This document shows, in pieces, positions 29,740 through 33,446 of a stretch of DNA of 35,131 nt (position 1 is the first letter of the stretch; each line of letters starts with the position of its first letter). Below the pieces are notes generated by a model. It was given only the letters and a program-made list of their open reading frames with translations, was not told the origin of the DNA and did not search any database. The DNA is from Erysipelotrichaceae bacterium. GTDB taxonomy: Bacteria; Bacillota_I; Bacilli_A; Erysipelotrichales; Erysipelotrichaceae. A program made the position numbers and the translations under genes. The stretch is from NCBI GenBank assembly GCA_012516665.1, contig JAAYWN010000093.1, positions 1 through 35,131 on the forward strand, given 5' to 3'.

Positions 29740-30581
29740 CAAAATTCATTTCAACACCGTCCCGTACGAAAGAGATCTTAGAGACGTATGGACTGCGGGC
29801 AAAAAAGAGCTTCGGTCAGAATTTTCTGGTCGACCCCGTCATTGTTGAACGCTGTGCAGAAGAAGCGCATTGTGAAGGGGCTGTCATTGAGATCGGTCCT
29901 GGTATCGGCTCTTTAACAGAACAGCTGGCCATCCATGCGAAGCATGTAACAGCATATGAAGTAGATCCAGATCTGATCGATGTGCTGAAAGATACACTGC
30001 AGGCATATGACAATGTGGAGATCATTCTGCAGGATTTCCTGACGATCGATCTGCCAGGCAAGGTCAAAGAACTGAAAGAGAAGTATGGTACGGTAAGTGT
30101 CTGTTCCAATCTGCCGTATTATGTAACAACACCGATCCTGTTTCAGATCTTTGAACAGGGAGCAGAGATTCCATATATTACGGTTATGGTCCAGAAAGAA
30201 GTCGGCGAGCGCTTCGCGGCCAGACCGAACGAAGCACCATATGGTGCACTGTCTGCGGAAGGACAGTATCTATATGAAGTGAAGAAGTTATTCAATGTGC
30301 CCGGCAGGAGCTTCAATCCATCACCGGATGTAGACAGTGTGATCATCCAGTTCAAACGCAGAGAAGATGCGGACCTTTCGATCAATCTGAATTCTTTCTT
30401 TGAGCTTGTCAGAGCATGCTTTAAGCAGAGAAGAAAAACAATATATAATAATTTAAAAGAATATCTTGATGACAGCGAACGAGCAAAAAAAGTGCTGGCA
30501 GAAGCTGAGATCCCCTGCACGAAAAGAGCGCAGGAATGTTCTTGGCAGGATCTGAAAAGAATATTTGAGGCAATGCAATGA
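29736..30581 (+). CDS. rsmA: 16S rRNA (adenine-1518/1519-N6)-dimethyltransferase (KsgA)
   Basis: RsmA dimethylates A1518 and A1519 of 16S rRNA late in 30S maturation. KKSFGQNFLVDP is the family N-terminal motif, VIEIGPGIGSLTEQL the SAM-binding motif I, and CSNLPYYVTTPIL the catalytic NLPY motif. The C-terminal helical domain contains RACFKQRRKTIYNNLKEYL. The 281 residues are complete. It overlaps both neighbours by four bases. Confidence 0.97.
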   Translation: MTKFISTPSRTKEILETYGLRAKKSFGQNFLVDPVIVERCAEEAHCEGAVIEIGPGIGSLTEQLAIHAKHVTAYEVDPDLIDVLKDTLQAYDNVEIILQDFLTIDLPGKVKELKEKYGTVSVCSNLPYYVTTPILFQIFEQGAEIPYITVMVQKEVGERFAARPNEAPYGALSAEGQYLYEVKKLFNVPGRSFNPSPDVDSVIIQFKRREDADLSINLNSFFELVRACFKQRRKTIYNNLKEYLDDSERAKKVLAEAEIPCTKRAQECSWQDLKRIFEAMQ

Positions 30582-31429
30582 AAGAAAGAGCGTATGCAAA
30601 GATCAATCTATGTTTGGATGTTGTAGGAAAGAGGGCATCAGATGGATATCATGAGCTGAAGATGATCATGGTGCCGATAGATTTCTATGATGTCCTGGCA
30701 ATGGAACCGGCAGAAGAAACATCGCTGTCGCTGAATCGCAGCTATCTGCCGGTCAACGGCAAGAATACGATCATCAAAGCAATTTCGGTCATGAAGAAAA
30801 AATACGGCTTTCATGAGAACTATGCATGCATACTGCAGAAGCATATTCCGACCAGAGCAGGATTGGCTGGCGGCAGTGCGGATGCGGCAGCCGCGATCCG
30901 TATGATGAACAGCATGCTTGGTCTTCATCTTTCCAATGAAGAACTGATCGAGGTCGGACAGGAAGTTGGATCGGATGTACCATTCTGCCTGCTGAATCAG
31001 CCTGCATATGTTGAAGGTACAGGTGAGAAGATTGAACCATTCTACTGCCATCCTGACTTAGAGCTTCTCTTGGTCAAGCCAAGAAGAGGTGTATCTACCA
31101 AGGAAGCATTTCAGATCGTCGATCAGGGAAATGATGTACATCCTGACTGTGCGGCCATGAAAGAAGCATTGATGATGGATGATTATGAAGGCATCATTGA
31201 TAATCTTGGCAACAGTCTTGAAGCAGCCTCTCTGCAGCTGGTGTCTGAGATCAAAGAGATCAAGGAACAGATGAAAAAAGATGGTTTTGACGGGGTGCTG
31301 ATGTCGGGCTCCGGCTCCACCGTCTTCGGCATAACAAGAGAGGATGCATTGCTGGAACAGGAAATGAAAAAAATGAAAGCAGAAGGATACTTTGTGCGCA
31401 GAACAAAGATCCTGTCAGGAGGAAGATAA
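30578..31429 (+). CDS. ispE: 4-diphosphocytidyl-2-C-methyl-D-erythritol kinase
   Basis: IspE phosphorylates CDP-ME in the non-mevalonate (MEP) isoprenoid pathway. It is a GHMP kinase with AYAKINLCLDV at the N-terminus (catalytic Lys), the ATP-binding glycine loop PTRAGLAGGSADAAA, and the C-terminal motif GVLMSGSGSTVFG. The 283 residues are standard. Its presence indicates that the organism uses the MEP route. It overlaps rsmA by four bases and ends 1 nt before the glmU ATG, the common Firmicute ksgA-ispE-(purR-spoVG)-glmU neighbourhood without the usual intervening genes. Confidence 0.97.
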   Translation: MKERAYAKINLCLDVVGKRASDGYHELKMIMVPIDFYDVLAMEPAEETSLSLNRSYLPVNGKNTIIKAISVMKKKYGFHENYACILQKHIPTRAGLAGGSADAAAAIRMMNSMLGLHLSNEELIEVGQEVGSDVPFCLLNQPAYVEGTGEKIEPFYCHPDLELLLVKPRRGVSTKEAFQIVDQGNDVHPDCAAMKEALMMDDYEGIIDNLGNSLEAASLQLVSEIKEIKEQMKKDGFDGVLMSGSGSTVFGITREDALLEQEMKKMKAEGYFVRRTKILSGGR

Positions 31430-31430
31430 G

Positions 31431-32372
31431 ATGAAGAATGCAATTATCATGGCCGGCGGCAAAGGAACGCGAATGAAGAGCGAACTGCCGAAGGTGCTGC
31501 ATAAGATCTTAGAAGAACCGATGGTCGGTCTGCAGATCCGCTCTTTAAGAAAAGCAGGCATTGAACGGATCGTTACGATCGTTGGCTATCGTCATGAAGA
31601 TGTTGAAAAAGAGATGGCAGGACAGTGTGAATTTGCTCTGCAGGAACCGCAGCTTGGAACAGGACATGCAGTCATGCAGGCAAAGCAATTGGAAAAAGAA
31701 ACGGGCACTACGATCGTTGCCAATGGAGACTGTCCATTGATCTCGGCTGAAACTTATCAGAAGATGCTTGCATGTTTAGGAGATGCTGACATGGCCATCC
31801 TGACAGCTGTTCCGGAAGACAGCAAAGCCTATGGCAGAGTGATCCGCCAAGCAGATGGCACGGTCGCAAAAGTAGTTGAATATAAGGATGCCAATGAAGA
31901 AGAAAAAGCGGTCAGAGAGATCAATACCGGCATCTATGCATTTAACAATCAGTCATTGTTTGCAGGACTGAAGCTCCTGAAGAATGACAATGCACAGAAA
32001 GAATACTATCTGCCAGGATTGGTAGAGATCATGATTGCACAGGGAAAGAAAGTCATTGCGATCCCTGCCAGCAATTGGGAAGAATGCGAAGGTGTTGATG
32101 ACAACACTGCCTTGGCCCAGGCATCCAAGTACCTGAAGCATCAGATCAATGCTCATTGGATGCAGGAAGGAGTCACGATCATAGATCCTGACAGTACTTA
32201 TATCGGACCGGATGTGACGTTTGGCCATGATATTACCGTTCATCCAAATACATACTTATATGGAAAGACAATTGTTGAAGATGGAGCAGAGATCCTGCCA
32301 GGATGCTATACAAAGAATGCAGTAATTCATAAAAATGAGATCCTTGGACCATTTTGCGTGAGAAAAGGTTGA
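31431..32372 (+). CDS. glmU: GlmU uridyltransferase domain, lacking the acetyltransferase domain
   Basis: Normal GlmU (about 455 aa) makes UDP-GlcNAc in two steps. Here only about 313 residues are encoded. The N-terminal uridyltransferase looks intact: MAGGKGTRMKSELPKVLHK, PQLGTGHAV, NGDCPLI, then EINTGIYAF and ECEGVDDNTALAQ. The left-handed beta-helix begins (IGPDVTFGHDITVHPNTYLYG) but stops at GPFCVRKG, where the complete protein continues with LRPGT and about 130 more residues holding the acetyltransferase active site. I found no frameshifted continuation downstream. I chose ATG 31431 (MKNAIIMAGG), with GGAGG before it, over the ORF-track ATG at 31392, which lies in ispE. Confidence 0.92.
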   Translation: MKNAIIMAGGKGTRMKSELPKVLHKILEEPMVGLQIRSLRKAGIERIVTIVGYRHEDVEKEMAGQCEFALQEPQLGTGHAVMQAKQLEKETGTTIVANGDCPLISAETYQKMLACLGDADMAILTAVPEDSKAYGRVIRQADGTVAKVVEYKDANEEEKAVREINTGIYAFNNQSLFAGLKLLKNDNAQKEYYLPGLVEIMIAQGKKVIAIPASNWEECEGVDDNTALAQASKYLKHQINAHWMQEGVTIIDPDSTYIGPDVTFGHDITVHPNTYLYGKTIVEDGAEILPGCYTKNAVIHKNEILGPFCVRKG

Positions 32373-32397: not shown

Positions 32398-32471
32398 GGT
32401 GACGCACATATGAAAAGATCTGATCTAAACAGAGTGTTTTAGACCAAATCTAAAAAAGAAAGAGGAAAAGC

Positions 32472-33446
32472 ATGGTTAAGGAAACTGTTGTATTCGCTCT
32501 GACTTCCAGCACTGATCTGGCTGCTGCAATCTGCAAGGACTTGAATCTCCCTTTAGGAAAGATCAAGGTCGAGCATTTCGCAGATGGTGAGATTCTGGTG
32601 GAACCCCAGGAATCTGTAAGAGGACGTTCGGTATTTATTGTTCAGTCGACATGCACGCCGGTTACAGAACATCTGATGGAGGTACTTGTCTGCATTGATG
32701 CATGCAAGAGAGCGAGCGCAGGTGAGATCAATGTTATCATGCCGTACTATGGATATGCACGGCAGGATCGCAAAGCAAAGCCGCGTCAGCCAATCACTTC
32801 CAAATTGGTCGCAAATCTATTGGTCACCGCAGGTGCCAACCGCGTCATTACATTTGATCTTCATGCAGCGCAGATCCAAGGATACTTTGATATCCCGATC
32901 GATGATCTGACAGCAGTACCGATGCTTGGAAAATATTTCAAGGATAAGAACTTTCCAAAGGATGGCGTCGTAGTCGTATCTCCTGACCATGGCGGCGTTG
33001 TAAGAGCCAGAAGATTGGCGGATGTACTGGATGCGCCGATCGCCATCATTGACAAGAGAAGACCGAAGCCGAATATGGTCGAGGCTCAGAATGTCATTGG
33101 CGATGTAAATGGCAAGATCTGCATTGTTGTGGATGATATTGTCGATACAGCAGGAACACTGTGTGCTGGCTGCAAGATCTTAAAGGATCATGGTGCCAAA
33201 GAAGTATATGTTGGCGTTACCCATGGCATCTTCTCCAGAGATGCAGTTGAAAAGGTCGAAAACAGTGTCATCAAGGAAATGGTCATCTCAAATACGATCC
33301 CATTCCCGAAGGAAAAAGCAGAGCATTCCACAAAGATCCATGTTCTGTCTATTGATGCAATGATTGCTAAAGCAATTGATGCCATTGAGAACCATACACC
33401 GGTATCTGATGTCTATAATGATTTTGGCTTTGATATGTATAAGTAA
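32472..33446 (+). CDS. prs: Ribose-phosphate pyrophosphokinase
   Basis: Prs makes PRPP from ribose 5-phosphate and ATP, feeding nucleotide, His and Trp synthesis; the transketolase and fhs in this window serve the same nucleotide supply. Motifs are FADGEILVEPQESVRG, the flexible loop PYYGYARQDRKAKPRQPITSK (core GYARQDRKAKPR), FDLHAAQIQGYFDIP, the PRPP loop VVDDIVDTAGTLC, and the metal-binding SPDHGGVVRAR. The 324 residues fit class I. It follows glmU as in many Firmicutes, with its own promoter and terminator. Confidence 0.97.
   Translation: MVKETVVFALTSSTDLAAAICKDLNLPLGKIKVEHFADGEILVEPQESVRGRSVFIVQSTCTPVTEHLMEVLVCIDACKRASAGEINVIMPYYGYARQDRKAKPRQPITSKLVANLLVTAGANRVITFDLHAAQIQGYFDIPIDDLTAVPMLGKYFKDKNFPKDGVVVVSPDHGGVVRARRLADVLDAPIAIIDKRRPKPNMVEAQNVIGDVNGKICIVVDDIVDTAGTLCAGCKILKDHGAKEVYVGVTHGIFSRDAVEKVENSVIKEMVISNTIPFPKEKAEHSTKIHVLSIDAMIAKAIDAIENHTPVSDVYNDFGFDMYK

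What the first reader, a model, noticed from the sequence alone, without database searches (positions are those of the whole stretch)
31431..32372. GlmU lacks the acetyltransferase domain
The protein stops at about residue 313, at the point where the catalytic left-handed beta-helix should begin in earnest. No frameshifted continuation is visible, and a prs promoter begins over the stop codon. The cell still needs glucosamine-1-phosphate N-acetyltransferase, so another protein must supply it, or the pathway is rewired, for instance through GlcNAc salvage.
Basis: partly seen in the sequence, partly recalled or inferred. Interest (0 to 1): 0.58.

Follow-up and report, generated by a model that had tools for sequence, protein, structure and literature searches.

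The report
Halved GlmU with separate replacement acetyltransferase
This gut bacterium has lost half of GlmU, a two-part enzyme that makes a key cell-wall building block, and the missing half appears to be supplied by a separate, horizontally spread enzyme of archaeal type; the same swap has happened several times in its relatives.

Summary
The glmU at 31431-32372 encodes 313 aa: an intact uridyltransferase domain plus a stub of left-handed beta-helix (LbH), ending before every acetyltransferase catalytic residue. The genome (Bulleidia/Solobacterium-type Erysipelotrichaceae, 95% complete) has no other GlmU, yet has GlmS, GlmM and MurA, so it makes GlcN-1-P and needs UDP-GlcNAc. It carries a separate 221-241 aa LbH protein (contig C166:1992-2714) closest to the acetyltransferase half of archaeal ST0452, with GlmU's R-E-K-H-Y active-site pattern at identical spacing. 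In 148 genomes of the order this LbH is in 31 of 32 with truncated GlmU and 3 of 85 with full-length GlmU; truncation changed state 6-8 times on the tree. Outside the order, none of 12 LbH carriers has a full-length GlmU and five have the truncated form. All 64 GlmU C domains examined in genomes without LbH keep the catalytic residues; the only four that lost them are in LbH carriers. LbH is 80% identical between families whose GlmU-N is 41% identical, so it spreads horizontally. Best reading: recurrent displacement of the GlmU acetyltransferase domain by a mobile stand-alone GlcN-1-P acetyltransferase. GlcNAc salvage is not needed. Enzyme activity is inferred, not measured.

The parts
31431..32372 (+). 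glmU, truncated: 313-aa monofunctional GlcNAc-1-P uridyltransferase
   Evidence: AF2 model pLDDT 92.7, best Foldseek hits are GlmU chains including the 331-residue E. coli construct entries 1fxj/1fwy
31431..32165 (+). uridyltransferase domain plus linker helix (about residues 1-245), catalytic motif GKGTRM, K21, Q71, D100, E150, N165 conserved
   Evidence: identical in 32 of 32 truncated and 52 of 52 full-length proteins compared; domain limits from the AF2 secondary structure
32166..32369 (+). residual left-handed beta-helix coils (about residues 246-313); ends before the positions of R333, E349, K351, H363, Y366 of E. coli GlmU
   Evidence: Hexapep matches; AF2 model; ends vary between species
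30578..31429 (+). ispE, upstream neighbour in the conserved rnmV-ksgA-ispE-glmU-prs order
   Evidence: same order in relatives
32472..33446 (+). prs, downstream neighbour

Best explanation
GlmU here is a monofunctional uridyltransferase (GlcNAc-1-P + UTP to UDP-GlcNAc). The preceding step (GlcN-1-P + acetyl-CoA to GlcNAc-1-P) is done by a separate left-handed beta-helix protein, 221-241 aa, encoded elsewhere in the genome (G000:C166:1992-2714) and related to the C-terminal half of archaeal bifunctional GlmU (ST0452 type). The LbH gene spreads horizontally. Where it arrives it makes GlmU's own acetyltransferase domain redundant, and that domain is then lost by truncation or by decay of its active site. 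Shown: the truncation, the LbH gene, its residues and the co-occurrence. Well supported: the horizontal spread. Inferred: the enzymatic activity of the LbH protein and its physiological substrate.
For: (1) GlmS, GlmM and MurA all present over cut-off, so the substrate is made and the product needed. (2) No second GlmU; of the other LbH proteins in the genome, those examined are serine and maltose/galactoside-type acetyltransferases, and the two adjacent ones on C193 (388 and 375 aa) have the length and NTP-transferase-plus-LbH layout of GlgC/GlgD. (3) The candidate's best family is TIGR03992 aligned to its acetyltransferase half (215-393 of 393), best PDB hit ST0452 (1.3e-20), best Foldseek hits ST0452 chains. 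ST0452 has measured GlcN-1-P acetyltransferase activity with His308 essential (PMC4909775); the aligned residue is H118, invariant in 31 homologues, as are R88, E104, K106 and Y121, with GlmU spacing. S. aureus GlmU key catalytic residues are E348 and H362, the same spacing of 14 (PMC11947611). (4) LbH in 31/32 truncated against 3/85 full-length genomes, Fisher 9e-24. (5) 6-8 state changes on a Prs+GlmU-N tree; independent pairs go the same way in 5, opposite in 0, tied in 1. (6) Extra named genomes: 8/9 truncated and 0/4 full-length carry it. (7) Outside the order, 12 LbH carriers: 5 truncated GlmU, 7 without recognisable GlmU, 0 full-length; 20 controls: 0 truncated. (8) 64/64 GlmU C domains without LbH keep H-Y-K-E-R; the only 4 that lost them sit in genomes with LbH. 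(9) LbH 80% identical across families whose GlmU-N is 41% and Prs 58% identical.
Against: No enzyme assay. At the position of E. coli N377 the LbH family has an invariant His, and the loop Lys (K392 / ST0452 K337) is shifted by one residue and not fully conserved. One truncated genome in the order sample (G138, a 92%-complete MAG) and one named MAG (G156) lack a detectable LbH, and one truncated Clostridia bin does too. Fisher's test ignores relatedness; the tree-based sign test alone reaches only p = 0.0625 because there are few independent pairs. The LbH gene lies on a 6.2-kb contig of a fragmented assembly, although the same gene is seen in isolates and single-contig relatives.
Confidence: 0.88

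Rival explanations
1. The acetyl group comes in by GlcNAc salvage: imported GlcNAc or GlcNAc-phosphate is converted to GlcNAc-1-P, and the truncated GlmU only adds UMP, as proposed for Rickettsia.
For: Precedent: rickettsial GlmU lacks the whole C-terminal domain and is thought to use host NAG-1-P (PMC5615194).
Against: GlmS and GlmM, the enzymes that make GlcN-1-P de novo, are both present over cut-off, unlike the host-dependent route described for Rickettsia. Salvage does not explain the LbH co-occurrence or the decay of GlmU-C active sites only in LbH carriers.
Confidence: 0.04
2. Acetylation happens at GlcN-6-P by a GNAT (eukaryotic GNA1 type), followed by a mutase acting on GlcNAc-6-P; the LbH protein does something else.
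For: No tool result supports it; GNAT proteins are common and were not surveyed one by one here.
Against: Would leave the bacterial-type GlmM and the near-perfect LbH-truncation link unexplained. LbH has the active-site pattern of GlcN-1-P acetyltransferases.
Confidence: 0.04
3. The LbH protein acetylates another amino-sugar phosphate (for example GalN-1-P) for a surface polymer, and its link with truncation is indirect.
For: ST0452 also accepts GalN-1-P (PMC4909775); in the window's genome and some relatives the upstream gene looks, by eye, like a LytR-CpsA-Psr protein.
Against: It would leave the essential GlcN-1-P step uncatalysed in more than 30 genomes, and the neighbourhoods are not conserved across genera.
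Confidence: 0.03
4. Assembly error, frameshift or recent pseudogene.
For: The genome is a fragmented assembly of 222 contigs.
Against: Conserved across many species, cultured isolates and single-contig genomes; uridyltransferase residues kept in 32 of 32; no remnant downstream.
Confidence: 0.01

Closest known systems
Bifunctional GlmU (TIGR01173; S. aureus 9dqf, E. coli 1hv9)
   Same: The uridyltransferase domain, its catalytic residues and the gene neighbourhood ispE-glmU-prs shared with full-length relatives
   Different: The acetyltransferase part of the LbH domain is absent; the protein falls below the family's score cut-off
Rickettsial C-terminally truncated GlmU (PMC5615194)
   Same: Natural loss of the whole acetyltransferase domain
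   Different: There it is explained by host-derived NAG-1-P; here GlmS and GlmM are kept and a separate acetyltransferase is present
Archaeal bifunctional GlmU (TIGR03992; ST0452, PDB 2ggo, 5z09, 5z0a)
   Same: Its C-terminal half is the closest solved and characterised relative of the stand-alone LbH; His308, Tyr311 and Asn331 equivalents are conserved
   Different: The LbH is a separate bacterial protein with no nucleotidyltransferase domain and a short helical N-terminus; a His where GlmU and ST0452 have Asn in the pocket
Mimivirus R689 (PMC9614988)
   Same: A monofunctional uridyltransferase resembling the GlmU N domain, shown to be active alone
   Different: 255 aa, viral, and paired with a eukaryotic-type GNAT acetyltransferase

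Membership tests
Bifunctional GlmU (TIGR01173) | Intact uridyltransferase domain with catalytic residues | tested here: met
Bifunctional GlmU (TIGR01173) | Complete C-terminal LbH acetyltransferase domain with R333/E349/K351/H363/Y366 | tested here: not met
   Protein ends at residue 313, model position about 311 of 452
Monofunctional (Rickettsia-type) truncated GlmU | N domain only, no acetyltransferase domain in the protein | tested here: met
Monofunctional (Rickettsia-type) truncated GlmU | No de novo GlcN-1-P route; GlcNAc-1-P taken from the host | tested here: not met
   GlmS and GlmM present over cut-off
GlcN-1-P acetyltransferase domain of archaeal GlmU (TIGR03992 C half) | Sequence and fold similarity of the stand-alone LbH | tested here: met
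   130 bits to positions 215-393; PDB 1.3e-20; Foldseek ranks 1-5 and 7 are ST0452
GlcN-1-P acetyltransferase domain of archaeal GlmU (TIGR03992 C half) | Catalytic His308 (essential), Tyr311, Asn331 | tested here: met
   H118, Y121, N141 invariant in 31 sequences
GlcN-1-P acetyltransferase domain of archaeal GlmU (TIGR03992 C half) | Fused nucleotidyltransferase domain / family cut-off of 292 bits | tested here: not met
   Stand-alone, 130 bits: related to the domain, not a member of the bifunctional family
GlcN-1-P acetyltransferase domain of archaeal GlmU (TIGR03992 C half) | Measured GlcN-1-P acetyltransferase activity | not testable with these tools
   needs an assay

The most novel reading that the evidence does not exclude
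In Erysipelotrichales GlmU is being taken apart domain by domain. One set of lineages lost the acetyltransferase half and uses a mobile stand-alone archaeal-type enzyme. A mirror-image set (19 of 148 genomes) keeps the acetyltransferase half but has deleted or degraded the uridyltransferase half, which must be replaced by a non-GlmU enzyme, perhaps a 303-aa 3PNN-like nucleotidyltransferase or GlmR. In one genus both halves of GlmU look catalytically dead while the gene is kept.
Probability: 0.45. Interest if true: 0.68.

Novelty: new variant of a known kind. Interest (0 to 1): 0.56.

Why it matters
GlmU is treated as a fused, nearly universal and essential bacterial enzyme and as an antibacterial target. 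Here the acetyltransferase half has been displaced repeatedly by a separate, horizontally moving gene in common gut and oral Bacillota, including cultured Bulleidia and Lactimicrobium. Pathway reconstructions, and any drug aimed at the GlmU acetyltransferase site, would misjudge these organisms, and neither protein reaches the score cut-off of a curated family. It also gives a natural series (both enzymes present, domain lost, active site decayed) for studying how an essential fused enzyme is taken apart.

Tried and rejected
Second GlmU in the genome: none. Other LbH proteins as the source: the ones examined are CysE- and Maa-type, with GlgC/GlgD-like proteins besides. Eukaryotic-type UDPGP as the uridyltransferase of genomes lacking GlmU-N: only 2 of 148. 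LbH linked to glmU by position: no, its neighbourhood is not conserved. Decay of GlmU-C in the three full-length + LbH genomes: not seen, residues intact; an earlier motif search that seemed to miss two of them was a pattern failure. Promoter over the stop codon: not found by the scan.

Full report
Observation. The ORF at 31431-32372 (+) is a 313-aa GlmU with a complete uridyltransferase domain and a stub of beta-helix. TIGR01173 aligns only up to position 311 of 452. The 99 bases to prs hold no remnant in any frame. The AF2 model of the protein is confident (pLDDT 92.7) and matches GlmU structures, including 1fxj and 1fwy, which are 331-residue E. coli constructs of the same extent. That such a construct keeps uridyltransferase activity is recalled knowledge, not tested here. 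K21, Q71 and D100, equivalent to K25, Q76 and D105 that are required in H. influenzae GlmU (PMC10128056), are present in all 84 proteins compared, as are nearly all other ligands checked. The window's protein and its sister species have Asp instead of Asn at the E. coli N227 position, a Mg2+ ligand by my own knowledge; the 30 other truncated proteins keep Asn.

Relatives. The organism is a Bulleidia/Solobacterium-type Erysipelotrichaceae. Truncated GlmU of about 300-340 aa occurs in cultured Bulleidia extructa W1219 and Lactimicrobium massiliense, in many MAGs, and in single-contig genomes. In 148 genomes of the order: 85 full-length, 32 truncated, 19 with only the C-terminal part recognisable, 11 without a strong match, and 1 cut by a contig edge.

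The rest of the pathway. GlmS (754 bits), GlmM (532 bits) and MurA (514 bits) are all over their cut-offs in the window's genome. A published Bulleidia extructa genome lists MurA to MurG (PMC12786226). So GlcN-1-P is made and UDP-GlcNAc is needed.

The replacement. The genome has a 241-aa LbH ORF (221 aa from the likely start) at C166:1992-2714. It is closest to the acetyltransferase half of archaeal GlmU; its AF2 model (pLDDT 75.9) finds ST0452 first. ST0452 acetylates GlcN-1-P and GalN-1-P, and His308 is essential for both (PMC4909775). Counting along the alignment, H308, Y311 and N331 fall on H118, Y121 and N141, all invariant in 31 homologues, with R88, E104 and K106 also invariant and at GlmU spacing. 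Differences: an invariant His at the N377 position, and a shifted loop lysine.

Co-occurrence. The LbH is in 31 of 32 truncated genomes and 3 of 85 full-length ones (Fisher 9e-24). Within the window's own genus both full-length species lack LbH, while 14 of 15 truncated ones have it; the exception is the incomplete MAG G138. On a tree of Prs plus the GlmU N domain, truncation changed state 6-8 times, and independent pairs go the expected way in 5 of 6 with none against; the sign test is limited by numbers (p = 0.0625). Outside the order, 12 LbH carriers were found among 392 genomes of the phylum; five have truncated GlmU, seven have none recognisable, none is full-length; 20 other genomes of that sample, chosen blindly by number, have no truncated GlmU. 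Most of those controls have no GlmU at all, so the informative controls are few.

Active-site decay. Of 71 GlmU C domains aligned, all 64 in genomes without LbH keep His, Tyr, Lys, Glu and Arg at the catalytic positions. Four have lost Arg, Glu and Lys, and all four are in genus g4, which carries LbH. Three full-length LbH carriers are intact, as expected of recent acquisition. The four share one genus and may reflect one event. This evidence comes from different proteins than the truncation count and points the same way.

Mobility. Against the window's genome, LbH is 78-81% identical in the second family, where GlmU-N is 41-44% and Prs 57-58% identical; in same-genus G014 it is only 70% although Prs is 81%. 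The LbH tree puts second-family sequences among Bulleidia ones with modest support, and gene neighbourhoods differ between genera. Horizontal spread followed by loss of the redundant domain is the simplest account.

What is known. Truncated GlmU is known in Rickettsia, explained there by host NAG-1-P (PMC5615194), and a stand-alone viral uridyltransferase is active (PMC9614988). I found no paper in the library describing a separate GlcN-1-P acetyltransferase paired with truncated GlmU, or truncation in Erysipelotrichales; the library misses most subscription journals. Hence 'new variant of a known kind'.

Mirror image. Nineteen genomes keep the C domain but have deleted (214-249 aa proteins) or degraded (363-385 aa) the uridyltransferase half at the same locus. 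Their uridyltransferase is unknown. Six of 22 such or GlmU-less genomes examined carry a conserved 297-315 aa nucleotidyltransferase related to PDB 3pnn, an uncharacterised protein; whether it is absent elsewhere was not tested. GlmR, shown to have uridyltransferase activity in Listeria (PMC10128056), is another candidate.

Noticed in passing
L157-L166, L168-L172 (with L173-L176: 19 genomes; C-only GlmU at the ispE-glmU-prs locus): Mirror-image loss: the uridyltransferase domain of GlmU is deleted or has lost its GxGTRM motif while the acetyltransferase domain keeps its active site (15 genomes); the UDP-GlcNAc pyrophosphorylase of these genomes is unknown.
   Followed up: partly
L173-L176 (G100, G135, G098, G006): In one genus both domains of GlmU look catalytically dead, yet a 368-385 aa ORF is kept at the locus; these genomes carry the stand-alone LbH.
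   Followed up: partly
L347:775-1686 and homologues in L348-L352: Conserved 297-315 aa nucleotidyltransferase (LAAGMGSRYGGLKQ motif, PDB 3pnn-like, function unknown) in six genomes that lack a GlmU uridyltransferase domain or GlmU altogether: candidate replacement uridyltransferase.
   Followed up: partly
G041 and G062: Two 98-99% complete genomes of the family gave no candidate at all for GlmU or any NTP_transferase (PF00483); G041 gave none for LbH either. Either withheld or oddly coded sequence, or a very unusual sugar metabolism.
   Followed up: no
L073:6001-6948 and L115:6001-7014: GlmU truncated at 318 aa in a Clostridia bin without LbH, and at 340 aa in a Cloacimonadota bin that has a 397-aa frame weakly resembling LbH (28%), perhaps an archaeal-type GlmU.
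   Followed up: partly
window 32097-32099 (GlmU residue 223): Asp in place of the Asn expected to bind Mg2+ (E. coli N227); only in this species and its 94%-identical sister among 84 proteins.
   Followed up: no
window 32416-32451: 14-pair hairpin between glmU and prs that scores as a terminator only on the minus strand.
   Followed up: no
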